Source of the DNA: Kiritimatiellales bacterium
GTDB lineage: Bacteria > Verrucomicrobiota > Kiritimatiellia > Kiritimatiellales > Pontiellaceae
Direction: 5' to 3'
Length of the DNA: 32,365 nt
Assembly: GCA_003230915.1 (NCBI GenBank)
Contig: QIHI01000001.1
Span: 1 to 32,365 of the forward strand
Shown here piece after piece: positions 1,916 to 29,868 of this stretch. The notes below the pieces were generated by a model that ran no database searches, was not told the DNA's origin, and saw nothing but the letters and a program-made list of their open reading frames with translations. Position numbers and translations under genes: made by a program. Positions within the stretch are counted from its first letter, which is position 1; each line of letters opens with the position of its first letter.

Positions 1916-2104
1916 TTAATTCGCCAACAACCTAGCAGAAGCTTTTTTGCGGGCAAGCCTTTTGTTCCATATTTTCTGTCCGCCTAGGCCTCTTGCTGAA
2001 AAGCCAAGCGCACTACATAAAAACAGAGCCTCGTACGCAATAAAAACGGCGATATGTTTGTCTTTATTAAACGTGCGCATATTGGGAGTATCGCACCGAA
2101 TTAT

Positions 2105-2515
2105 ATGAACCGAAAATCCACATCCAAAATCGGCATGACGCTGATCGAAGTGCTCATCGCGATGGTCATCCTAAGCGTTGGCGTGTCGTCCATGATGGTG
2201 GCGATGTCGCGGTGTCTCGCAGTGGTTCGCACCGCCCGCAACCTCGATGTGGTCCGCAGCCTGATACGGCAGGTGGATCTCGAGAACCCCATCGACCGGA
2301 AAAACATCGAGGAAACCACTGAAACCGGCGACTTTGAAGATACGGAGGGCTATACGTGGAGCCGCGAAATATTCATGGTCGACGAGGAGGAACGACCCGG
2401 ACTATTTCTTGTGACAACACGCATTAACTGGTCGGAGCGGGGTAAGGATTCCTTCGAGGAAGTTATCACCTACAAATACGCCCCCGATGCCGAAAGCCTA
2501 ACGAGGGAGTTTTGA
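2105..2515 (+). CDS. gspI: Type II secretion pseudopilin, GspI-like
   Basis: A small type IV pilin-like protein of about 136 residues. The prepilin leader MNRKSTSKIG is followed by MTLIEVLIAMVILSVGVSSM, giving the GspO cleavage site G|M, Glu at +5 and the N-terminal hydrophobic helix. GspI is a minor pseudopilin that forms the tip complex with GspJ and GspK and primes pseudopilus assembly in the inner membrane. An earlier in-frame ATG at 2054 would give a 27-residue leader, which is unusually long, so the ATG at 2105 is preferred although neither has a clear Shine-Dalgarno sequence. It is first in an operon with GspJ-, GspK-, GspL- and GspM-like genes. The I rather than H assignment rests on this order and the short size; the globular part is too divergent to confirm by eye. 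Confidence 0.8.
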   Translation: MNRKSTSKIGMTLIEVLIAMVILSVGVSSMMVAMSRCLAVVRTARNLDVVRSLIRQVDLENPIDRKNIEETTETGDFEDTEGYTWSREIFMVDEEERPGLFLVTTRINWSERGKDSFEEVITYKYAPDAESLTREF

Positions 2516-2540
2516 ACTCCTGAAAATTGAGCCCTGAAAT

Positions 2541-3257
2541 TTGACCCTTAAAACTCAAAATTTAAAGCTTAAAACCGCTCGGGGATTCACCCTGCTGGAG
2601 TTGATGGTGGCAATGGTAATCCTGACGATTGCCATGTCGATCGCCTTTCAAGCTTTTAGCGGAACCATCCGCGCTTGGAAGCGGGGTACGGAGGTGATCG
2701 AAAGTATCAAGCACGGTCACTTTTCCATGACCCAGCTGGCCAATGCACTCAATTCCACGATCTACTTTTTCAACGGCCGCAAAAGCTATGCCTTCAAACT
2801 CAAAAAGGATACCTTTTCCGGTCTCCCAGCCGATACCCTCAGTTTTGTGACCGCCAGTAGTGCTTTCATGCCGGAAGGTTCGCCGCTCCAGCACGGTCCG
2901 CACCGACTCAAGCTCTACATCGCCGACGACGACCGCGGTAACCCCGCCCTCTTCTCCACCGCCTTCCCCGCCATTGCAAATGAAGAAGATGCCGAAGAGG
3001 AATACGACGAGGATCCCCATCTGGTTTCCCGTGCAGTCCAAGGTTTGGAAATCCTACTCTACGACGAGGAGTTGGAGGATTGGACCACTGACGCGTGGGA
3101 AAATGAAAACTCCATTCCCGAGCGCCTGATGATCATCATCTACGTTGCCTCGGAAAATGAAAAAGAGGAACCCATCGTTTTCACGCGTATTCTCGAAATC
3201 CCTGTTGCCCAATCTCTCGACGCAAAACTACTCGGCCCGACCAACGTAAAAAAATGA
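2541..3257 (+). CDS. gspJ: Type II secretion pseudopilin, GspJ-like
   Basis: A 238-residue pseudopilin. After a 15-residue basic leader (ending in TARG) comes FTLLELMVAMVILTIAMSIA, with the G|F cleavage site, Glu at +5 and the hydrophobic helix. The size and the position between GspI and GspK fit GspJ, the minor pseudopilin of the I-J-K tip complex. The start must be the TTG at 2541: a stop codon lies in frame just upstream at 2535-2537 and no ATG or GTG occurs before the cleavage site. No good ribosome-binding site is visible. The middle of the protein (about residues 150-170) is very acidic (Glu/Asp-rich), plausibly a calcium-stabilised or exposed loop. The stop codon overlaps the ATG of the next gene (ATGA), indicating translational coupling. 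Confidence 0.85.
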   Translation: MTLKTQNLKLKTARGFTLLELMVAMVILTIAMSIAFQAFSGTIRAWKRGTEVIESIKHGHFSMTQLANALNSTIYFFNGRKSYAFKLKKDTFSGLPADTLSFVTASSAFMPEGSPLQHGPHRLKLYIADDDRGNPALFSTAFPAIANEEDAEEEYDEDPHLVSRAVQGLEILLYDEELEDWTTDAWENENSIPERLMIIIYVASENEKEEPIVFTRILEIPVAQSLDAKLLGPTNVKK

Positions 3258-4261
3258 ACATGATCAAAAAATCCAAAAAAGGCGCAGCCTTGCTGGTGGC
3301 ACTATGGGTGCTTATCATCCTATCGTTGATCGTGGGTTCCTTCGCCTTCGAAATCCAACTTGAAGCGATGCTGGTCTCGCACCAGCGCAAAAAATTCCAC
3401 GCGGAAATGGCGGCATATTCAGGCCTCGAGTATGCCCGCGCAATCCTCGACCAGCAAGCCAATGCAAAAGAACTTGAAATCGAGGACATGGCTGAGGACC
3501 TTGATGGATTCATGCAGGCGGCGCTCTTTATTAAGCGCGGCCTCTCCACCACCTCTAAAATCGAACTGGATGACAGTACCTTCCACGTTACGCTCAAATC
3601 GGCCGAGGCCGGTCGTAACATTAACCTGCTTGTCCGCGGGGAGTGGCTTGAAATTTTTGAAATGGCCAATATCCCTTCCACAGAATGGGACACGATGATC
3701 GACTGCTTGGAAGATTGGATCGACGAAGGCGATCTCCACCAACTCAACGGCGCGGAGTCCGACGATCCCTTCTATCAAGACCGCGGCTATCCGGTGAAGA
3801 ATGGCCCGCTCGATAGCGTCGAAGAACTACTCCTGATTAAAGGTTGGGGGGAAGATGTTCTTTTTGGCAAAGAGGAGGATGAAGAGAGTGATGCTATTTT
3901 TGGCATTGCCAACCTGTTGACGGTTTGGGGTGACGGCAAAGTCAATCTGAACACAGCTACGGCCGATGTATTGTTAAGCTACGCCGAGTATGAAGATTGG
4001 GAGCTGGCAAGCGTTCTGGAAGCGCGTAATGGCGAAGATGGTGAGCCAGGAACACTCGACGACGGTATTAAGGATCTGGCCGAAGTTGGGGCCGATCCCA
4101 GTAAATTTAAATTGCAAAGTGATTTTGTGAAGGTAACGTCTGTAGGCGATGCGTTCGGCAACCAATATCAAATTGAATGCATCTTCTTGCTCGGTGAGGG
4201 GAACGCCGTAGTCGTTTATTGGGAAGAAGGGTCGGTCAAAAGCCATGAAAATACGCGATAA
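3254..4261 (+). CDS. gspK: Type II secretion minor pseudopilin GspK-like
   Basis: A 335-residue GspK-family protein, the large minor pseudopilin that caps the pseudopilus. The N-terminus MNMIKKSKKG|AALLVALWVLIILSLIVGS has a prepilin cleavage site but no Glu at +5, which is characteristic of GspK. Near residue 230 the sequence GKVNLNTATADVLLSYA matches the family's conserved NVNTA motif in the helical domain. Acidic stretches (for example EEDEES around residue 212) are notable. Its ATG overlaps the gspJ stop codon, and its own end overlaps the gspL start by 17 bases. The calls for GspI and GspJ are strengthened by this more recognisable neighbour. Confidence 0.9.
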   Translation: MNMIKKSKKGAALLVALWVLIILSLIVGSFAFEIQLEAMLVSHQRKKFHAEMAAYSGLEYARAILDQQANAKELEIEDMAEDLDGFMQAALFIKRGLSTTSKIELDDSTFHVTLKSAEAGRNINLLVRGEWLEIFEMANIPSTEWDTMIDCLEDWIDEGDLHQLNGAESDDPFYQDRGYPVKNGPLDSVEELLLIKGWGEDVLFGKEEDEESDAIFGIANLLTVWGDGKVNLNTATADVLLSYAEYEDWELASVLEARNGEDGEPGTLDDGIKDLAEVGADPSKFKLQSDFVKVTSVGDAFGNQYQIECIFLLGEGNAVVVYWEEGSVKSHENTR

Positions 4262-5636
4262 AATCATAACCGCTGTCTGCCGCACAGTGGACGGTCTCGA
4301 GTGGACCAGCTGGCAACTTAAACCGGACGGCCCCGAAACGCTCCAGCAAGACTCTGTTCCCGTGATCTTTTCCGGCAACACAACTGAAGAACTACTGGCT
4401 TCCATCGAGCTTCCGGAGAGTGTGACCGAGCACCTGACGGGCGATATTACTGTGCCGCTACGCACCGCCGAACTACTCCTACGGATCATGGAACTCCCTG
4501 CCGTAGAAGCTGGCGAAGTGGCCGACATGGTCGGATTTCAAATCGATAAAATCTCCCCGTTTCCTTTGGATCAACTCGCCATCTCGCATGAGATACTCAA
4601 GCAAACCGAAGAAACCTCGATCGTGCTGATGGTCGCCGCCAAACGCAGCCACATCGATGCCATTGGCGACACCTTCCAGCAGAAAGGGGTTCGTATTCAC
4701 AGCATCGACGCGCGAGTACTTGGTTGGATGCACCTGCTACAGGATGAGGGACACATCTCCACCGAGGGGTGCGAAATCATCGTCATCGACGATGCTATCG
4801 ACTTTTCGCTGGTGATCATCGAGTCTGGAATTCCAGTGGCCTTCCGCATGCTCGATACGCAGAGTGACGACATGAACGTGGTCGATGAACTGGCCTACGA
4901 AATTGGCTACACGCTCACCACGCTCGACACCGAACGCGACCTACCCGCCCCGTCCGCCATCCAATTCTGGAGTCATGGAGATCTCTCGGCCAGCATGCGT
5001 GCCAAACTATCGGAAAAATGCGGTCTTCCCGTCCATCACAACCGACTCGCGATCCTCCCACCGCTCTCGGAAGGCATTGTGCGCCGCACCTTGGCCGATG
5101 GAAGCCATATCGAGCTAATCCCACGCGAATGGGTCGAGTTCGAGAACCGAAGGCAGCTCCACCATAGGTTTATCCGAATCTTCTCCGCAATTGCCGCCAC
5201 CTGGCTCGCCGTGCTGTTGATCTTCTATACCATCTACAAGGTTCGCGACGTTCGCCTCAATAAAGTCACGAGTCGCGTCTCCGCCATCGATTCCGATGGC
5301 AAGAAGGCGCTTTTGAACCGGCAAGAACTCCATGATCTCAAGGTCTACACAGACCGCTCCGGATCCGCGCTTGAATGCCTACGCGAAGTCACCCGCATGC
5401 TTCCCATTGGCAATATTGAGTTTGTCTCGTACAACTATAAAAAAGGTAAAGGGGTCACGCTACGCGGAACCGCCAGCACCGACGATACCGTCTACGATTT
5501 TTTCGCAACCCTCACCGCTTCCGAACTTTTTGAGCAACTTAAAACCCAATCGGTAAACATCAAAACCACTAAAGGGGTACGGCGCGCTGTTTTTTCAGTC
5601 ACCCTCGAACTCCCCACCGAGGAGGAATCTAAATGA
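4245..5636 (+). CDS. gspL: GspL-like inner-membrane platform protein (PilM-PilN type)
   Basis: A 463-residue protein with an N-terminal actin-fold (PilM/GspL cytoplasmic) domain over about residues 1-290, one transmembrane helix at about 308-332 (IFSAIAATWLAVLLIFYTIY) and a C-terminal periplasmic PilN-like domain. Features of the first domain include VPLRTAELLLRIMELPAVEA and MVGFQIDKISPFPLDQL, typical of the surface that binds the secretion ATPase. In type II secretion GspL connects the GspE ATPase to GspM and the pseudopilus. This protein looks like a PilM-PilN fusion, which is what GspL is structurally. It overlaps gspK by 17 bases and ends in an ATGA overlap with the next gene. GspE, GspF, GspG and GspD are not in the window and must be encoded elsewhere. 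Confidence 0.85.
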   Translation: MKIRDKIITAVCRTVDGLEWTSWQLKPDGPETLQQDSVPVIFSGNTTEELLASIELPESVTEHLTGDITVPLRTAELLLRIMELPAVEAGEVADMVGFQIDKISPFPLDQLAISHEILKQTEETSIVLMVAAKRSHIDAIGDTFQQKGVRIHSIDARVLGWMHLLQDEGHISTEGCEIIVIDDAIDFSLVIIESGIPVAFRMLDTQSDDMNVVDELAYEIGYTLTTLDTERDLPAPSAIQFWSHGDLSASMRAKLSEKCGLPVHHNRLAILPPLSEGIVRRTLADGSHIELIPREWVEFENRRQLHHRFIRIFSAIAATWLAVLLIFYTIYKVRDVRLNKVTSRVSAIDSDGKKALLNRQELHDLKVYTDRSGSALECLREVTRMLPIGNIEFVSYNYKKGKGVTLRGTASTDDTVYDFFATLTASELFEQLKTQSVNIKTTKGVRRAVFSVTLELPTEEESK

Positions 5637-6184
5637 ATATCTCTCAACGGGAAATGATCCTAGGTGCCGCCACACTGACCGCCGTTCTGATCGGCCTAAC
5701 GTGGTACATCGTCGACAGCAAAGCTGAGGAATGGAAGGCCAAAGCCAACGAAATAGAAAAGGCCAAACAGCAGATCCGCCATTACGAGGCCGCCATTAAG
5801 ATGCAGGAAAACTGGCTCGACGAACTCAATGCCCTGCAAGGCGATCTACGTGTCTTCAATAGTCAAAATCATTCCGTATCGCCGGAACTGATGAAGACCA
5901 TCAAATCGATCTCGAGCAAGCACGGGCTGGATATTACCCGTAGTCAGCCCTACAATGAAAAGTCCACTGGCAATCTCTTTGAACTCGGCATCAACTGCAC
6001 CTGGCAAGGGAAGCTCGTTGCCATGGTCAACTTTCTCACCGACCTTCAACAGCAGGGCGTTCGCTACGATGTCCGCCAGCTCAACGTGACCCCCGTTGGG
6101 AAAAACACCGGCGAACTCAAGGGCAACATGGTCATCCACTGCGCCTATACCCGCAAACCAGCGGCAGACAAAGGCGCGAAATGA
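5633..6184 (+). CDS. gspM: GspM/PilO-like inner-membrane protein
   Basis: A 183-residue bitopic protein: a short cytoplasmic N-terminus, a transmembrane helix at about residues 8-26 (MILGAATLTAVLIGLTWYIV), a coiled-coil-like helix (about 28-75, rich in Lys, Glu and Ala) and a C-terminal ferredoxin-like fold (about 85-175). This is the GspM/PilO architecture, which pairs with GspL/PilN in the inner-membrane platform. It overlaps the gspL stop codon (ATGA) and is the last intact gene of the operon. The assignment rests on architecture and position rather than on a diagnostic motif. Downstream, its stop codon overlaps an ATG that begins a decayed gene, so the operon may once have continued. Confidence 0.8.
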   Translation: MNISQREMILGAATLTAVLIGLTWYIVDSKAEEWKAKANEIEKAKQQIRHYEAAIKMQENWLDELNALQGDLRVFNSQNHSVSPELMKTIKSISSKHGLDITRSQPYNEKSTGNLFELGINCTWQGKLVAMVNFLTDLQQQGVRYDVRQLNVTPVGKNTGELKGNMVIHCAYTRKPAADKGAK

Positions 6185-6508
6185 ATGTTGAAGCCATTCC
6201 CAGAGCCTACGAAGAAATCCTTCCGTTCGACAGACTGGATCTTTGCCCATCTGAACTTCCAGCGTATCGAACCCCCGGGACACACACCCGGCTCGTGCTA
6301 TATTCTCTTTCCCGAAGGCTGGAATTATGATCGCTGGCGGCACTCTATTATAAAGGCTCTTGTGGCTGGCGGCGATGTCCGACAGCTTCGCCAATCGCTC
6401 AACACACTCAAGCAGCTCCCCAGCGAAACCCACGTCTATCCCGGTCATAGCCCCAATACAACCATCGAAATCGAACGAATCATTAACTTTTTATGCAATG
6501 AAGGATAA
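6181..6508 (+). pseudogene. Decayed metallo-beta-lactamase-fold hydrolase (glyoxalase II-like), 5'-deleted and frameshifted
   Basis: Pieces of the C-terminal half of a glyoxalase II-like metallohydrolase can be read in order, but in changing frames: LPFDRLDL from the frame of the ATG at 6181; then HLNFQRIEPPGHTPGSCY in the second frame; MIAGGTL in the third (where family members have a metal-binding SGD or AGD); YYKGSCG back in the first; and GGDVRQLRQSLNTLKQLPSE with VYPGHSPNTTI in the second again. At least four indels are needed. The N-terminal HxHxDH metal site is absent, and the Asp expected in AGD is Gly. The ATG overlapping the gspM stop is therefore the edge of a deletion remnant, not evidence of a working gene. 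This is a pseudogene by direct reading of the sequence. Confidence 0.85.
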
Positions 6509-6625
6509 AGCGCGTCGGCGCGAGGCCCTTTCAAATGAATTTTATTTTCCTGTTGGCGCCCGTTTAGGTGTACACTTTCTATCCGTTAAACTTTCATGAA
6601 CAGTAGCGTAAACTAGGGGGCAGCA

Positions 6626-7405
6626 ATGAAAACAGATAACCCCGATTCTCACATCAACCTACTTTGGACGGGGGGTTGGGATTCAACGTTTCGCCTGCTG
6701 CACCTTATTCTTGTCGAGAAAAAGCGAGTCCAACCTTACTATGTAGTGGATCATGAAAGGAAATCCACCGAGTACGAATTTCTGGCCATGGAAAAGATTA
6801 AAAATAAACTGTTCCTCCAAAGCCCAGAAAGTAAGGAACTAGTACTGCCTACGATCATTGGATATCGGAACGAAGTGATCCCCAACGAAAAGATCACCCG
6901 CAAGGCTCAACAGCTGTGGGACGAGGTTAAACTGGGTCATCAATATGAGTGGCTACCTCTTTTTGCCAAGCAAAACGGCTTGCACGACCTAGAAATGTGC
7001 CATGAAAAGAAGCCCTCTCCCAGCTTGTTCGACCTGTTGCTCTACCCCGAATTAGTCGGGGAAGGTCACGATTGCCGGATCAACGATACCGTCAAAAATG
7101 ATCTCTTAGAAATTTTCAAGTATTTCCGCTTCCCCATTTGCCAGATTGAAAAAAAAGAAATGGAACAGATTTCCAAACAATATGGCTTTTTTAAACTCCT
7201 CCAGAATAGTTGGTTTTGCCATTCCCCAAAAAAGAACGGGGTTCCATGCGAAACCTGCAACCCCTGTCTAGCTGCCCGCAAGGCCGGCTATTCACACGGG
7301 TTACCGAAAACAAAATTTTTAAAGAGAAAATACTGCTACTTAACCTCGAAACTCTGGAATATAAAAAACCGCCTTGGTCGGCGGTTTCGGAGCAATGCTG
7401 CGTAA
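6626..7405 (+). CDS. PP-loop ATP pyrophosphatase, QueC-like, function unknown
   Basis: A 259-residue protein beginning INLLWTGGWDSTFRLLHLIL, which is the PP-loop signature (S/T-G-G-x-D-S) of the adenine-nucleotide alpha-hydrolase fold. Such enzymes adenylate a carboxyl or carbonyl group. Near the C-terminus WFCHSPKKNGVPCETCNPCL gives C-x10-C-x2-C-x2-C, resembling the zinc site of QueC (7-cyano-7-deazaguanine synthase), so QueC-like chemistry is possible. It lacks the overall QueC sequence and no queuosine genes are nearby, so the substrate is unknown. It stands alone between a pseudogene and the convergent ftsZ, and is visibly more A/T-rich and Lys-rich than its neighbours, which suggests acquisition by transfer. 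The ATG at 6626 follows GGGGGCAGCA. Its last 15 or so codons contain the ftsZ terminator hairpin. LarE, another PP-loop enzyme, was considered and rejected. Confidence 0.75.
   Translation: MKTDNPDSHINLLWTGGWDSTFRLLHLILVEKKRVQPYYVVDHERKSTEYEFLAMEKIKNKLFLQSPESKELVLPTIIGYRNEVIPNEKITRKAQQLWDEVKLGHQYEWLPLFAKQNGLHDLEMCHEKKPSPSLFDLLLYPELVGEGHDCRINDTVKNDLLEIFKYFRFPICQIEKKEMEQISKQYGFFKLLQNSWFCHSPKKNGVPCETCNPCLAARKAGYSHGLPKTKFLKRKYCYLTSKLWNIKNRLGRRFRSNAA
7363..7387 (-). terminator. Intrinsic terminator of the ddl-ftsQAZ operon
   Basis: An 8-bp perfect stem (AAACCGCC at 7366-7373 with GGCGGTTT at 7380-7387) and six-base loop; read on the minus strand it is followed by a run of six T. It lies about 33 bases past the ftsZ stop codon and entirely inside the 3' end of the convergent PP-loop coding sequence. 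There is no T-run on the plus-strand side, so it should terminate only the ftsZ transcript. Confidence 0.88.
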
Positions 7406-18415: not shown

Positions 18416-19231
18416 ATGAAAAACCTATTCGATCTATCCAACAAAGTGATCGCCGTAACTGGAGCAACCGGCGTATTGGCCGGTGGTGCGGCAAAATATC
18501 TTCAAGAACAGGGCGCGCACGTCGTCTACCTCGGCCGACGGAAGGAAAAAGTGGACGAGGCACTTACCGAAGCCTTGAAAATTTCCAAAAACTGTTTGGG
18601 CTACACCTGCGATGTGACCGACCAGACGTCCATCGATAACGTCCATAAAAACATCATCGCTGAACTTGGCCACATCGATGTACTCATCAACGGCGCCGGC
18701 GGTAACATGCCCGGTGCCACCATCGGCCCCGGCAAGGATGTGTTTGATTTGGACATGGACGACTACTCCAAGGTGCTCGACCTCAACCTAAAGGGAACCG
18801 TCATGCCTACCATGGCCTTCGCCAAGACCTTCAAGGCACAGGGCTCCGGTTGCGTGATCAACTTTTCATCGATGTCTGCGGCGCAAACGCTCACTCGCGT
18901 ACTCGGCTACTCCAATGCAAAGGCCGCCGTCGACAACTTTACCAAATGGATGTCCACCGAAATGGCCCTCAAATATGGCGACGGTATCCGTGTGAATGCC
19001 CTTGCCCCAGGATTTTTCATTAGCGACCAAAACCGCGCGCTGCTGATCAACGAAGATGGAAGCTATACGGAGCGCGGCCAGCAGGTGATCAACAAAACCC
19101 CCTTTCGCCGTTTCGGTAGGCAAGAGGAAGTCTTCGGTACCATCCACTTTCTTGCTTCGGATGCCGCTTCGTTTGTCACCGGTTCCGTCATTCCCGTCGA
19201 TGGCGGATTTTCAACATTCACAGGAGTCTAA
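18416..19231 (+). CDS. SDR-family oxidoreductase, D-mannonate oxidoreductase (fructuronate reductase) type
   Basis: A 271-residue short-chain dehydrogenase. The cofactor loop is TGATGVLAGGAAKYL, the catalytic tetrad motifs are NGAGG, SSM and YSNAKAAVDNF (Tyr and Lys spaced by three), and the end has VTGSVIPVDGGFSTFTGV. The segments LNLKGTVMPT and APGFFISDQNRALLINEDGS closely resemble the Bacillus UxuB/YjmF-type SDR that interconverts D-fructuronate and D-mannonate. It is the first gene of an operon with a PfkB kinase, gnd and a larA-like gene. The ATG at 18416 has AAAGG nine bases upstream and is preferred to the ATG at 18407, which overlaps that site. The SDR family is certain; the substrate is inferred. 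Confidence 0.85.
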   Translation: MKNLFDLSNKVIAVTGATGVLAGGAAKYLQEQGAHVVYLGRRKEKVDEALTEALKISKNCLGYTCDVTDQTSIDNVHKNIIAELGHIDVLINGAGGNMPGATIGPGKDVFDLDMDDYSKVLDLNLKGTVMPTMAFAKTFKAQGSGCVINFSSMSAAQTLTRVLGYSNAKAAVDNFTKWMSTEMALKYGDGIRVNALAPGFFISDQNRALLINEDGSYTERGQQVINKTPFRRFGRQEEVFGTIHFLASDAASFVTGSVIPVDGGFSTFTGV

Positions 19232-19233
19232 AA

Positions 19234-20307
19234 ATGACCGAAACCACACACAAAAAATATTCGCTGCTGGTTCCAACCAGCATGGGCGTTCGACTGACTC
19301 CGGCTGACTCTCAACCTTTCCATTGCAGCGACACCTTCAAAATGCAGGCCACCAGCGCAGAAAGCAACGTAGCGAGCATTGCTTCGTATCTCGGCATGCC
19401 GGTCAAGGTCTTAACTGCATTTGTTAAAGGCAGTCCCATCTCGCACTTTATCAAGGATAATATCAGAAGCCGCCGGATGGATTTTGAGGGACCGGAGTTT
19501 GAACAGACCAACCCATGGGGCTATCGCCATCAGATCAATATGGCCGACAGCGGCTGGGGCGCACGCGGACCGAGAGTTCAGAACGACCGAGCCGGTGAAG
19601 TCGGCCGGGAGCTCAGTGCGGATGATTTCGACCTTGATCGAATTTTTACGCAGGAAGGCGCTGAGATTGTGCATCTGTCGGGACTCATTGCAGCACTGTC
19701 GCCGAAGACGAGCCAGTTCTGTCTTGATATTGCCCGAATCGCCAAGAAAAACGGGTCAAAAATATCCTTCGACCTCAACCACCGAGCCAGTTTTTGGACG
19801 GGTAGAGAGGAAGAACTTGCCTCGGCATTTGCCGAGATCGCATCCCTTAGTGATATCCTGATCGGCAATGAAGAGGACTTCCAACTCTGTCTGGGCATCG
19901 AAGGCCCGGAGTCTGGCGGAAAAGGACTCGATGAAAAAATCGACGGGTTCAAAAAGATGATTGGGCGGGTTCAAGCCGCCTATCCTAACGCCAGCTACTT
20001 TGGAACAACGCTGCGTGAAGTGATTTCGGCAAACTCCCATATGTGGGGCGCGTTGGTGACCGATGGCAACGACTGGGAAATCATCAAACCTCGCGAAATC
20101 GGTGTTCTGGATCGCATTGGTGGTGGCGATGGGTTTGTCGGTGGGTTGCTTTACGGCATACTTAAGGGCTGGGATGTCAAAAAGTGTACTCGGTTCGGTT
20201 GGGCAAGCGGGGCGCTTGCGGCTACCATGCTGACCGATTATGCCCAACCCGCCGATGAAGATCAGCTTTGGAGCATTTGGGAAGGCAACGCGCGCGTTAA
20301 ACGGTAG
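19234..20307 (+). CDS. PfkB-family carbohydrate kinase (2-keto-3-deoxygluconate kinase-like)
   Basis: A 357-residue ribokinase-like enzyme. The PfkB C-terminal signature is present as DRIGGGDGFVGGLLYGIL, with the catalytic Asp in GGGD, and the N-terminal part has SAESNVASIASYLGMPV, the typical substrate-domain motif. FDLNHRASFW resembles KDG kinases (FDxNxRxxLW). It starts two bases after the SDR stop, and its ribosome-binding site (CAGGAG) lies in the end of that gene, so the two are coupled. If the usual route operates it would phosphorylate 2-keto-3-deoxygluconate. No mannonate dehydratase or KDPG aldolase gene is in the window, while gnd follows, so a sugar-acid substrate feeding 6-phosphogluconate is also possible. 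Confidence 0.8.
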   Translation: MTETTHKKYSLLVPTSMGVRLTPADSQPFHCSDTFKMQATSAESNVASIASYLGMPVKVLTAFVKGSPISHFIKDNIRSRRMDFEGPEFEQTNPWGYRHQINMADSGWGARGPRVQNDRAGEVGRELSADDFDLDRIFTQEGAEIVHLSGLIAALSPKTSQFCLDIARIAKKNGSKISFDLNHRASFWTGREEELASAFAEIASLSDILIGNEEDFQLCLGIEGPESGGKGLDEKIDGFKKMIGRVQAAYPNASYFGTTLREVISANSHMWGALVTDGNDWEIIKPREIGVLDRIGGGDGFVGGLLYGILKGWDVKKCTRFGWASGALAATMLTDYAQPADEDQLWSIWEGNARVKR

Positions 20308-20329
20308 ACAAATTTAAAAGGAGAGAGTG

Positions 20330-21778
20330 ATGAAAGCAGATATTGGATTAATTGGATTGGCCGTTATGGGCGAAAACCTCGTCCTCAACATGGAAAGCAA
20401 GGGATTCACGGTGGCGGTATACAATCGTACGGTGGCGAAGGTCGATGCCTTTATAGATGGCCGCGGTGCGGGAAAAAACTTCATCGGATGCCACAGCATC
20501 GAAGAACTATGCGCCAACCTTGAGCGCCCACGCAAGGTGATGATGCTTGTGAAGGCCGGAGACCCCGTAGATTCGTTCATCGAGCAAGTTCTCCCTTACC
20601 TCGAAGAGGGCGACATTATTATCGACGGTGGAAACAGCCACTATCCCGACACCATTCGCCGCACCGAATATGTTGAAAGTAAAGGCCTCCTCTATATCGG
20701 CACCGGCGTCTCCGGCGGCGAGGAAGGTGCCCTGCTCGGCCCGTCAATCATGCCCGGCGGATCGTCCGCTGCGTGGGATGCCGTGAAGCCGATCTTCCAG
20801 AAAATCTCCGCCCACACCGAAGCTGGTGAGCCCTGCTGCGAGTGGGTTGGCGAAGATGGCGCAGGCCACTTTGTCAAGATGGTCCACAATGGAATTGAAT
20901 ATGGCGACATGCAGATGATCTGCGAAACCTACCAAATGATGAAGGAGGGTTTAGGACTCTCCAACGAACAGATGCACGACGTGTTCAAGGAGTGGAACGA
21001 GGGGGAACTCGACTCCTACCTTATCGAAATCACCCGCGATATTCTTGGCTACAAAACCGATGAAGGCGAAGCCGTCATCGACCAGATTCTCGATACCGCC
21101 GGACAGAAAGGCACCGGCAAGTGGACTGCGGTTTCGGCACTCGACCTCGGCCAACCGCTAACGCTCATCGGCGAAGCCGTTTTCGCCCGGTGCCTCTCCG
21201 CGCTCAAGGACGAACGCGTCGAGGCCGCGAAGGTACTCTACGGTCCCTCCGTGGTATTCGACGGCGACCAGACCGCATTCCTCGATGACCTCAAGCTGGC
21301 GTTGTATGCCTCGAAGATCATCTCCTATGCCCAGGGCTACCAGCTCATGCGCGCCGCCGCCGAGGAGCATGGCTGGAAATTCGACAACGGATGCATTGCC
21401 CTCATGTGGCGAGGCGGTTGCATCATCCGCTCAGCCTTCCTTGGTAAAATTAAAGAGGCATTCGACACCAATCCCGATCTCGTCAACCTCTTGCTCGACC
21501 CATTCTTCAAAGACGCCATCGAAACCGCACAGTCGGCTTGGCGCCGCGTGGTGATGAAGTCCGTCGAACTCGGTATTCCGATGCCCGCCATCGGTGCGGC
21601 GCTGGCCTATTACGATGGCTACCGCACCGCCCGCCTTCCGGCCAACCTGTTGCAGGCGCAACGCGACTACTTCGGCGCACACACCTACGAGCGTCTCGAC
21701 AAGCCGCGCGGCGAATTCTTCCACACCAATTGGACTGGACGCGGTGGCGATACCTCCGCCTCGACCTATATTGTTTAG
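20330..21778 (+). CDS. gnd: 6-phosphogluconate dehydrogenase, decarboxylating
   Basis: A 482-residue enzyme that oxidises 6-phosphogluconate to ribulose-5-phosphate with release of CO2. The Rossmann motif is GLIGLAVMGENLVLNMESKG, followed by VAVYNRT (the NRT motif is typical of NADP use). The catalytic part includes IDGGNSHYPDTIRRTEY, GTGVSGGEEGALLGPSIMPG and GAGHFVKMVHNGIEYGDMQ, with the catalytic Lys in HFVKM. The C-terminus has RPANL-type and TNWTGRGGDTSAS segments. AAAGGAG six bases upstream supports the ATG at 20330 over the GTG three bases earlier. It belongs to the SDR-kinase-gnd-larA operon, an unusual setting in which gnd serves a sugar-acid pathway. Confidence 0.97.
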   Translation: MKADIGLIGLAVMGENLVLNMESKGFTVAVYNRTVAKVDAFIDGRGAGKNFIGCHSIEELCANLERPRKVMMLVKAGDPVDSFIEQVLPYLEEGDIIIDGGNSHYPDTIRRTEYVESKGLLYIGTGVSGGEEGALLGPSIMPGGSSAAWDAVKPIFQKISAHTEAGEPCCEWVGEDGAGHFVKMVHNGIEYGDMQMICETYQMMKEGLGLSNEQMHDVFKEWNEGELDSYLIEITRDILGYKTDEGEAVIDQILDTAGQKGTGKWTAVSALDLGQPLTLIGEAVFARCLSALKDERVEAAKVLYGPSVVFDGDQTAFLDDLKLALYASKIISYAQGYQLMRAAAEEHGWKFDNGCIALMWRGGCIIRSAFLGKIKEAFDTNPDLVNLLLDPFFKDAIETAQSAWRRVVMKSVELGIPMPAIGAALAYYDGYRTARLPANLLQAQRDYFGAHTYERLDKPRGEFFHTNWTGRGGDTSASTYIV

Positions 21779-21782
21779 TTTC

Positions 21783-21821
21783 TGTAAGGCTGGAAGGTTT
21801 TTTAAATATTCCAGCCCTACA
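21783..21821. repeat. Imperfect 13-bp inverted repeat between gnd and the larA-like gene
   Basis: TGTAAGGCTGGAA (21783-21795) and TTCCAGCCCTACA (21809-21821) pair at 12 of 13 positions around a 13-base A/T-rich loop. The inner 8-bp arms (GGCTGGAA/TTCCAGCC) are perfect. It lies in the 57-base gap between two cotranscribed genes and could be an extragenic palindromic repeat, a processing or stabilising hairpin, or a weak attenuator (a run of six T lies in the loop, not after the stem). Confidence 0.75.
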
Positions 21822-21835
21822 ATTTGGAGAAAAGC

Positions 21836-23116
21836 ATGATTAGTAAATTCGGAGAAGAGATTTCGATCCAACCGGATGAATTATGCAGGCTGGTTTTCCA
21901 ATGTTTAGAGCAGGCAGGAAAACTGGGCAAAGTGCTCATCCTCCCGCCGGATCACACGCGCCTGAATTCGATGGCGGGACCGATTACGGTAATGGTCTAC
22001 GAAAAGCTGACCGCCGAAGGGGCACAGGTAGATATCCTCCCCACCCTTGGAACACACAACCCGATGACGGATGCGCAGCTACGCATGATGTTCGGCGACT
22101 CGATTCCGTTGGAAACCTTCAAGGCACACGACTGGCGCAACGAGGTAGTTCGGAAGGGTTTGATTGAAGGGGAAATGCTCTCCGAGTGGTCGAATGGGAA
22201 GGTCGACTACACCGTCGGCGTCGAAGTGAATAAGATGCTGTTCGATGGCTACGATCTAATCCTTTCCATAGGCCAGGTTGTTCCGCATGAAGTGGTCGGC
22301 ATGGCGAACTATACCAAGAACGTGGTCGTTGGTGCAGGCGGCTCCGATATCATCAATAAATCGCACTTTCTCGGTGCGGTAGCAGGGATCGAAAATATCC
22401 TTGGCCAAACCGATACCCCGGTGCGCCGCTTGTTCAACCACTCGGTTGATGCCTACCTTTCCGATCTTCCGATCACGTATATCCTGACGGTGATGGAGCA
22501 GGATTATGAGTCCGGCGAAATGCATATGCGCGGGTTTTATGCCGGGGAAGAGGTTTCCGTTTTTGAAGAGGCCTGCAAACTGGCGCGCACGGTCAACATC
22601 ACCCTACTCGACCGCGAGCCGAAAAAGATCGTCGTCTACCTCGATCCGCACGAGTTTCAAAGCACGTGGCTGGGAAATAAGGCGGTCTACCGCACGCGCA
22701 TGGCCATTGCCGACGACGGAGAACTGATCGTACTCGCACCCGCGCTCAAGGAATTCGGCGAAGATCCAACCATTGATCGACTTATCCGTAAGTTTGGCTA
22801 TTACGGAACGCCCGCCACGCTCAAGGCCGTTAAGAACGATGCGGAATTGCACAATAACCTCGGCGCAGCGGCACACCTAATCCACGGATCGTCCGAAGGG
22901 CGCTTTAAAATCATCTACTGTCCCGGATCGGATATGACGCTCGACGAAATTCGCTCGGTTGGCTTCGAGGCTGTGGCCTACGATGAAATGGCTACACGCT
23001 ACAATCCCGAAACACTCAAAGACGGCTTCAACACGTTGCCTGATGGTGAAGAGATTTTCTACATCAGCAATCCCGCCCTCGGTCTCTGGGCCTATAAGGA
23101 AAAGTTTAGAGATTAG
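21836..23116 (+). CDS. LarA-family nickel-dependent 2-hydroxyacid racemase/epimerase
   Basis: A 426-residue protein of the lactate racemase (DUF2088) family, whose enzymes use a nickel-pincer nucleotide bound to a lysine. Residues corresponding to the LarA active site are all visible: Asp39 and Arg42 in PPDHTR, His74 in GTHNP, His151 in VPHEVVG, Lys161 in NYTKNVVVG and His177 in NKSHF. The spacing His-x9-Lys-x15-His is the same as in L. plantarum LarA (His174, Lys184, His200). Family members include lactate, malate and gluconate 2-epimerase enzymes. Placement after gnd and with a mannonate-type SDR makes sugar-acid epimerisation (D-mannonate/D-gluconate) more likely than lactate racemisation; this is inference. 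The ATG at 21836 has GGAG six bases upstream. Cofactor genes larB, larC and larE are not in the window. Confidence 0.9.
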   Translation: MISKFGEEISIQPDELCRLVFQCLEQAGKLGKVLILPPDHTRLNSMAGPITVMVYEKLTAEGAQVDILPTLGTHNPMTDAQLRMMFGDSIPLETFKAHDWRNEVVRKGLIEGEMLSEWSNGKVDYTVGVEVNKMLFDGYDLILSIGQVVPHEVVGMANYTKNVVVGAGGSDIINKSHFLGAVAGIENILGQTDTPVRRLFNHSVDAYLSDLPITYILTVMEQDYESGEMHMRGFYAGEEVSVFEEACKLARTVNITLLDREPKKIVVYLDPHEFQSTWLGNKAVYRTRMAIADDGELIVLAPALKEFGEDPTIDRLIRKFGYYGTPATLKAVKNDAELHNNLGAAAHLIHGSSEGRFKIIYCPGSDMTLDEIRSVGFEAVAYDEMATRYNPETLKDGFNTLPDGEEIFYISNPALGLWAYKEKFRD

Positions 23117-23131
23117 TCCATAAAAAAACTC

Positions 23132-23263
23132 ATGGACGAAATTTTTATCCTTTAAGCCACGGCCCATGCGGCAAAGATGCCGATCTACGACTACCACTGC
23201 CATCTACCTCTAAAGGAGATTGCGGAGGACAAACCGTACGGCAACCTCGGTGAAATCTGGTTA
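23132..23263 (+). pseudogene. uxaC: Truncated remnant of glucuronate isomerase gene (uxaC)
   Basis: Starting with the ATG at 23132, 15 bases after the larA-like stop, the sequence reads MDEIFIL, an in-frame stop at 23153-23155, then [18 protein letters not shown] and [17 protein letters not shown]. This matches the start of UxaC enzymes (M-D-E-x-F-L-L..., HAAKMPI-x-DYHCHL, IAED, IWL), including the first metal ligands in HCH, with a short internal deletion at the stop. Homology ends at 23263, well short of a UxaC of about 470 residues. UxaC converts D-glucuronate to D-fructuronate, the substrate of the SDR at the head of this operon, so the remnant is strong context evidence for the pathway served here. 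Confidence 0.85.
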
Positions 23264-27811: not shown

Positions 27812-29857
<2,046 letters not shown>

Positions 29858-29868
29858 GTAAATGAGTG

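What the first reader, a model, noticed from the sequence alone, without database searches (positions are those of the whole stretch)
18416..23263. Operon suggesting a nickel-epimerase route from uronate to 6-phosphogluconate
Seen: an SDR of the D-mannonate oxidoreductase type, a PfkB kinase, gnd, a LarA-family enzyme with all six catalytic residues, and a 5' remnant of uxaC, all in one direction. Known: UxaC makes fructuronate, UxuB-type SDRs reduce it to mannonate, and the LarA superfamily includes gluconate 2-epimerases. Gnd consumes 6-phosphogluconate. Inference: the LarA-like enzyme epimerises mannonate to gluconate, the kinase gives 6-phosphogluconate and Gnd gives ribulose-5-phosphate, avoiding KDG and its aldolase. 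The weak point is the kinase, which looks KDG kinase-like. The role of gnd in a uronate operon otherwise has no explanation.
Basis: partly seen in the sequence, partly recalled or inferred. Interest (0 to 1): 0.78.

Follow-up and report, generated by a model that had tools for sequence, protein, structure and literature searches.

The report
Nickel-epimerase sugar-acid operon
A bacterial gene cluster that probably turns the sugar acid mannonate into gluconate with a nickel enzyme, phosphorylates it and feeds it to the pentose phosphate pathway; a route of this kind was already proposed for another bacterium, but the epimerase subgroup and the kinase here are different and untested.

Summary
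LarA has the seven cofactor/catalytic residues and the published gluconate-epimerase signature (invariant in 162 of 162 homologues collected). larB, larC and larE are in the genome. Kinase, gnd and larA recur together in the genus and in most Bacteroidota loci seen. The kinase falls outside the KDG kinases that sit beside KDPG aldolase, and five related loci carry a GntK-type gluconokinase instead of it or beside it. No uxuA, KDPG aldolase or KDG kinase was found in this draft genome. So mannonate -> gluconate -> 6-phosphogluconate -> ribulose-5-P is the best reading, unassayed. Corrections: gnd is the only copy found and zwf is present, so gnd also serves the ordinary pathway; uxaC is dead, so uronate may not be the substrate; the route was proposed for Thermotoga in 2012 and its epimerase shown in 2020. 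Against: larA stands alone in 40 of 81 Verrucomicrobiota loci, a near relative (L052) lacks the kinase, and some larA genomes lack larBCE.

The parts
18416..19231 (+). SDR oxidoreductase, D-mannonate oxidoreductase (fructuronate reductase) type
   Evidence: NF006132 343 bits, cut-off 281; in the genus relatives and G081 the one over-cut-off copy lies elsewhere, in G081 beside uxaC
19234..20307 (+). PfkB-family kinase, proposed gluconate (hexonate) kinase
   Evidence: PF00294; clade of 63 rows apart from KDG kinases, 100/98; starts 2 bases after the SDR stop codon
20330..21778 (+). gnd, decarboxylating 6-phosphogluconate dehydrogenase; only copy found in the genome
   Evidence: TIGR00873 773 bits, cut-off 426.7; PF00393 one match in G000
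21839..23116 (+). LarA-superfamily group 18, proposed D-mannonate/D-gluconate 2-epimerase (nickel-pincer nucleotide)
   Evidence: NF052594 610 bits, cut-off 500; seven cofactor/catalytic residues and E151,V152,A345,H346
23132..23263 (+). uxaC remnant (5' end of uronate isomerase), decayed
   Evidence: PF02614 positions 22-56 only; in-frame stop, missing residues and end of homology

Best explanation
The operon encodes a KDG-independent branch of sugar-acid catabolism. The SDR interconverts D-fructuronate and D-mannonate. The group-18 LarA, carrying the nickel-pincer nucleotide made by the genome's LarB, LarC and LarE, epimerises D-mannonate to D-gluconate at C2. The PfkB-type kinase phosphorylates gluconate to 6-phosphogluconate, and Gnd converts that to ribulose-5-phosphate. 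In the relatives the block stands near uxaC and uxuA, so mannonate can go either way there. In this reduced genome uxuA, KDPG aldolase and a KDG kinase were not found and uxaC is decayed, so only the epimerase branch is left, fed probably by imported mannonate, gluconate or fructuronate. Shown here: gene identities, conserved neighbourhood, residues, presence or absence in the draft, kinase clade. Inferred: every substrate and the direction.
For: LarA residues and gluconate-epimerase signature invariant in 162 of 162 (signature from PMC11770544). larB/C/E over their cut-offs in the genome. Kinase-gnd-larA in 9 of 9 fetched genus/order genomes with larA18; 31 of 36 well-flanked Bacteroidota loci have kinase and gnd, 28 of 36 SDR, kinase and gnd. 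The operon kinase and a separate KdgK occur within 8 kb of larA in 7 loci and fall in different clades. GntK-type gluconokinase in the cluster in 5 loci. No UxuA, KDPG aldolase or KDG-kinase match in the window genome. Low dN against high or saturated dS for all four genes.
Against: No assay. In 40 of 81 Verrucomicrobiota loci larA has none of the queried neighbours within 7 kb, and 62 of 81 have no queried kinase on its strand. L052, the closest named relative (larA 80% identical), has a diphosphate-dependent phosphofructokinase-type protein and a HAD-like protein between uxuA and gnd and no PfkB kinase. Five Bacteroidota loci with SDR, larA and gnd lack this kinase (L096, L107, L113, L114, L126). 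L188 has both GntK and the PfkB kinase. gnd is the only copy and zwf is present. 25 of 136 larA18 genomes have no larC match. Absences rest on a 92.7% complete draft.
Confidence: 0.68

Rival explanations
1. Phosphorylation first: the PfkB enzyme is a D-mannonate 6-kinase and the group-18 LarA a 6-phosphomannonate 2-epimerase, giving 6-phosphogluconate for Gnd, as measured in Lactobacillus suebicus extracts where the genes are not identified.
For: The two activities exist in L. suebicus, where GntK homologues were suspected of preferring mannonate (PMC6978723, passages), so the GntK-bearing loci do not settle the order; gene order does not tell the order of reactions.
Against: The signature residues match those of gluconate epimerases tested on unphosphorylated mannonate; E. 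coli GntK was reported not to use mannonate (cited in PMC6978723).
Confidence: 0.12
2. The kinase is a divergent KDG kinase and the larA-gnd pair is a separate activity that merely shares the operon.
For: Nearest solved structure is a KDG kinase, 2afb, 123.5 bits; shared Arg and GxGD residues; uxuA lies next to the kinase in the relatives.
Against: Separate clade; a KdgK with KDPG aldolase exists elsewhere in the genus relatives and in some of the same clusters; no KDPG aldolase found in the window genome.
Confidence: 0.1
3. Relict: gnd is kept for the ordinary pentose phosphate pathway and its neighbours are remains of a uronate operon on the way out.
For: uxaC decayed; uxuA and aldolase not found; only gnd copy; genome 1.9 Mb against 3.0-6.3 Mb in the 8 larA18-bearing genus relatives.
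Against: SDR, kinase and larA are intact with low dN; larB, larC and larE are kept; the SDR, elsewhere in the relatives, is here 2 bases upstream of the kinase.
Confidence: 0.1

Closest known systems
Thermotoga maritima gnd-uxaRED-gntEK galacturonate route (proposed by Rodionova 2012, not read; described in PMC3750489)
   Same: gnd, a uronate-pathway oxidoreductase, a LarA-family epimerase and a kinase in one cluster; mannonate to gluconate to 6-phosphogluconate to pentose phosphates
   Different: Epimerase of group 20 there, group 18 here; kinase called GntK there, PfkB family here; uxaC decayed here
GntE1/GntE2 D-gluconate 2-epimerases, LarAH groups 19 and 20 (PMC7583248; structure 4NAR)
   Same: Seven cofactor/catalytic residues; E after the catalytic His and the aligned A-H pair
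   Different: Only remote similarity to 4NAR (119.9 bits); different group; V where 4NAR has S; no assay in group 18
Lactobacillus suebicus mannonate kinase and 6-phosphomannonate epimerase route (PMC6978723)
   Same: Joins mannonate to 6-phosphogluconate and 6-phosphogluconate dehydrogenase
   Different: Phosphorylation first; genes unidentified
PfkB KDG kinase (KdgK; 2afb)
   Same: Family and conserved Arg and GxGD residues
   Different: Separate clade; 17 aligned positions switched, including GG to SA at 41-42

Membership tests
D-gluconate 2-epimerase (GntE) of the LarA superfamily | Cofactor and catalytic residues of LarA | tested here: met
   D38, R41, H73, H150, K160, H176, K281; 162 of 162
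D-gluconate 2-epimerase (GntE) of the LarA superfamily | E,V,A,H at LarA F175, F176, W358, T359 | tested here: met
   E151, V152, A345, H346 in 162 of 162 (signature); the last two placed by alignment to 4NAR, not by superposition on LarA
D-gluconate 2-epimerase (GntE) of the LarA superfamily | Member of an assayed group (19 or 20) | tested here: not met
   Matches NF052594, group 18, hypothesised but unassayed in PMC7583248
D-gluconate 2-epimerase (GntE) of the LarA superfamily | Activity on D-mannonate/D-gluconate | not testable with these tools
   Needs purified enzyme and cofactor
D-gluconate 2-epimerase (GntE) of the LarA superfamily | Cofactor genes larB, larC, larE in the genome | tested here: met
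   286.8, 186.5 (LarC1) and 285.8 bits, all over cut-off
PfkB KDG kinase | Groups with KDG kinases adjacent to KDPG aldolase | tested here: not met
   63 operon kinases on one side of a 100/98 branch (labels by best match, long-branch warning)
PfkB KDG kinase | KDPG aldolase in the genome to use the product | tested here: not met
   No PF01081 match in G000, 92.7% complete
Gluconokinase GntK/IdnK type (TIGR01313) | Match to the family model | tested here: not met
   Window kinase is PfkB and TIGR01313 is not among its matches
Gluconate kinase by function | Phosphorylates D-gluconate | not testable with these tools
   Inferred from context only
Decarboxylating 6-phosphogluconate dehydrogenase | TIGR00873 over cut-off | tested here: met
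   773 of 426.7
SDR-type D-mannonate oxidoreductase | NF006132 over cut-off | tested here: met
   343 of 281; activity untested
Functional uronate isomerase UxaC | Full-length PF02614 protein | tested here: not met
   Only positions 22-56 of 464 in the genome

The most novel reading that the evidence does not exclude
The operon kinase is a D-mannonate 6-kinase and the group-18 LarA is a nickel-pincer epimerase of the phosphorylated acid (6-phosphomannonate to 6-phosphogluconate). It would supply the missing genes of the L. suebicus-type route and a LarA enzyme acting on a sugar phosphate, in a cluster common in Bacteroidota.
Probability: 0.12. Interest if true: 0.75.

Novelty: new variant of a known kind. 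Interest (0 to 1): 0.5.

Why it matters
It gives a directly testable function to an unassayed nickel-enzyme subgroup (LarA group 18) and to an unnamed PfkB kinase clade that recurs with it in Bacteroidota and part of Verrucomicrobiota. If right, many of these bacteria have a KDG-free branch that sends sugar acids to ribulose-5-phosphate, and the window genome, where only this branch was found, is a natural test case.

Tried and rejected
Lactate racemase: signature is E,V,A,H, not F,F,W,E/Q, and the lactate racemase model gives 31 of 460 bits. SDR as gluconate 5-dehydrogenase: 174 and 154 bits against cut-offs 279 and 369. Gnd as evidence by itself: dropped. Assembly chimera as the cause of the uxaC remnant: not excluded, but the kept piece also has an in-frame stop and missing residues. 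Promoter and terminator scan: 4 found against 4.7 expected and 9 against 7.3. Lone larA loci: eight sampled neighbours in six loci were CCA-transferase, threonine ammonia-lyase, two efflux proteins, ParA, ApbE and two unassigned, no substrate hint. FGGY kinase of L176: no model reaches its cut-off, specificity open. L061 (SDR-gnd-larA, no kinase): upstream genes are PanE-, YggS-, hexapeptide- and YicC-like. Structure prediction and fold search were not run. The larC association (111/25/127/124) ignores relatedness and is not used as proof.

Counting notes. The 80 G-genome loci cover 80 of the 136 genomes over the NF052594 cut-off; 11 of them were chosen because their genus g78 seemed to lack larC, and G211, G317, G235, G086 because the GntK of their relative G194 had been seen. 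Some loci are cut by contig ends. In one search proteins under 380 aa and identical strings were dropped; a few genes may be in twice with different ends.
Full report
Observation. The window is the whole contig C13 of a 1.9-Mb, 143-contig draft, 92.7% complete. Four intact genes follow each other on the + strand: SDR 18416-19231, PfkB kinase 19234-20307, gnd 20330-21778, LarA-superfamily gene 21839-23116; a uxaC remnant follows. SDR, Gnd and LarA pass curated cut-offs; the kinase passes only the general PfkB model. The best named matches to its LarA are Verrucomicrobia and Lentisphaerae MAGs.

Epimerase. PMC7583248 (outline and passages) sorted LarA homologues into 25 groups, showed mannonate-gluconate epimerisation for groups 19 and 20 and hypothesised hexonate epimerisation for group 18. 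PMC11770544 (passages) gives gluconate epimerases the residues E,V,A,H at LarA F175, F176, W358, T359. In 162 distinct group-18 protein strings of at least 380 aa, the seven cofactor/catalytic residues and E,V,A,H are invariant. The A-H pair was placed by alignment to 4NAR, not by superposition on LarA. LarB, LarC and LarE of the genome pass their cut-offs.

Neighbourhood. In the 8 same-genus genomes with larA18 the order is kinase-gnd-larA-(second gnd in 3)-uxaC; the same-order G081 has kinase-gnd-larA with uxaC elsewhere, next to its SDR; uxuA lies divergently upstream in 8 of these 9 loci, and in the ninth genome on another contig. L052, a named near relative, has uxuA, gnd, larA and uxaC, but a diphosphate-fructose-6-phosphate phosphotransferase-type protein and a HAD-like protein where the kinase should be. 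Of 59 Bacteroidota loci, 46 have the kinase, 47 gnd and 42 the SDR on larA's strand within 8 kb; of the 36 with over 4.5 kb on both sides, 31, 35 and 32. Of 81 Verrucomicrobiota loci (window plus 80), 14 have the kinase, 35 gnd, 28 SDR, 15 uxaC, and in 40 larA has no queried neighbour within 7 kb. The cluster is common but not universal.

Kinase. Its nearest solved relative is a KDG kinase. But within one cluster Carboxylicivirga linearis (L104) has uxaC, a KdgK (502 bits to NF041633), KDPG aldolase, SDR, this second kinase (160 bits to the same model), larA and gnd; L123 has the same plus uxuA. In 7 Bacteroidota loci both kinases lie within 8 kb of larA. The operon kinases are one side of a 100/98 branch (63 rows), with a long stem under a 61-row core; KdgK rows are not one clade, the labels come from best matches, and the tool warns of long branches meeting. 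The 61 keep the Arg and GxGD residues and switch 17 aligned positions against 21 KdgK rows, among them GG to SA at 41-42; that these line the substrate pocket is recalled, not tested. Five loci of family f55 have a GntK/IdnK-type gluconokinase: UxaC-SDR-GntK-LarA in L175, L186, L187, SDR-GntK-LarA in L189, UxaC-SDR-GntK-PfkB-LarA in L188 (TIGR01313 checked in L175 and L188; the others by phmmer). I read this as replacement with L188 in between; L188 can also mean two activities.

Window genome. No UxuA, no KDPG aldolase, only the uxaC remnant, one gnd, one zwf. Its four other PF00294 proteins match a hexose-kinase model just under cut-off, HMP-P kinase, a weak IolC match, and nothing; no KDG-kinase model appears at E 1e-20. 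The 8 larA18-bearing genus relatives keep UxuA, aldolase and uxaC. Pairs with three relatives give dN 0.06-0.21 and dS of 1.4 or more, or saturated, as expected under purifying selection.

Gnd. It is the only copy found and zwf can supply its substrate, so its place here has an ordinary explanation too. In 3 of 8 genus relatives a second gnd, 57-59% identical to the window's, lies between larA and uxaC.

Contrary findings. 25 of 136 larA18 genomes have no larC match; in genus g78 15 of 19, and the five tested there have no LarB or LarE match over cut-off. Draconibacterium aestuarii (L098) also has none over cut-off (larC not tested). Either the cofactor is taken up, or the enzymes work otherwise, or genes were missed.

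Literature. T. maritima has aldH-pelB-gnd-uxaRED-gntEK (PMC3750489, passages); Rodionova 2012 (not read; cited in PMC6978723 and PMC7583248) proposed the mannonate-gluconate link. PMC6978723 (abstract and passages) found the phosphorylation-first route in L. suebicus. In searches of the open-access library I saw no report of a group-18 assay or a PfkB-family gluconate kinase; beyond the named passages only listings were seen.

Verdict. A well-supported but unassayed variant of a known route: another epimerase subgroup and another kinase type in the gluconokinase position.

Noticed in passing
Bacteroidota loci, e.g. L127:12329-13450, L098, L130: A PdxB-like 4-phosphoerythronate dehydrogenase gene lies with larA and gnd in 36 of 59 loci (family model checked for L127 only). 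4-phosphoerythronate inhibits 6-phosphogluconate dehydrogenase in Bacillus subtilis (PMC6449344, passages), so it may protect Gnd.
   Followed up: partly
Genomes G016, G031, G058, G073, G097 (genus g78); L098: Group-18 larA with an intact active site, but no LarB or LarE match over cut-off: possible uptake of the nickel cofactor from other organisms.
   Followed up: partly
L035:8846-10234, L036, L037: A second, 57-59% identical gnd between larA and uxaC in 3 of 8 genus relatives.
   Followed up: partly
L188 (G235): GntK-type gluconokinase and the PfkB kinase side by side between SDR and larA.
   Followed up: partly
L052:2009-4185: Diphosphate-fructose-6-phosphate phosphotransferase-type gene and a HAD-like gene in place of the PfkB kinase.
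   Followed up: partly
window 1-32365 (genome G000): Genome of 1.9 Mb against 3.0-6.3 Mb in 8 larA18-bearing genus relatives; G300 of the same genus is 1.2 Mb and has no larA18, gnd, uxaC or uxuA match.
   Followed up: partly
window 29765-29863 (-): TPP riboswitch upstream of thiC.
   Followed up: no
window 2054-7405 (+): Six + strand ORFs (2054, 2541, 3254, 4245, 5633, 6626) without a Pfam match at E 1e-8.
   Followed up: no
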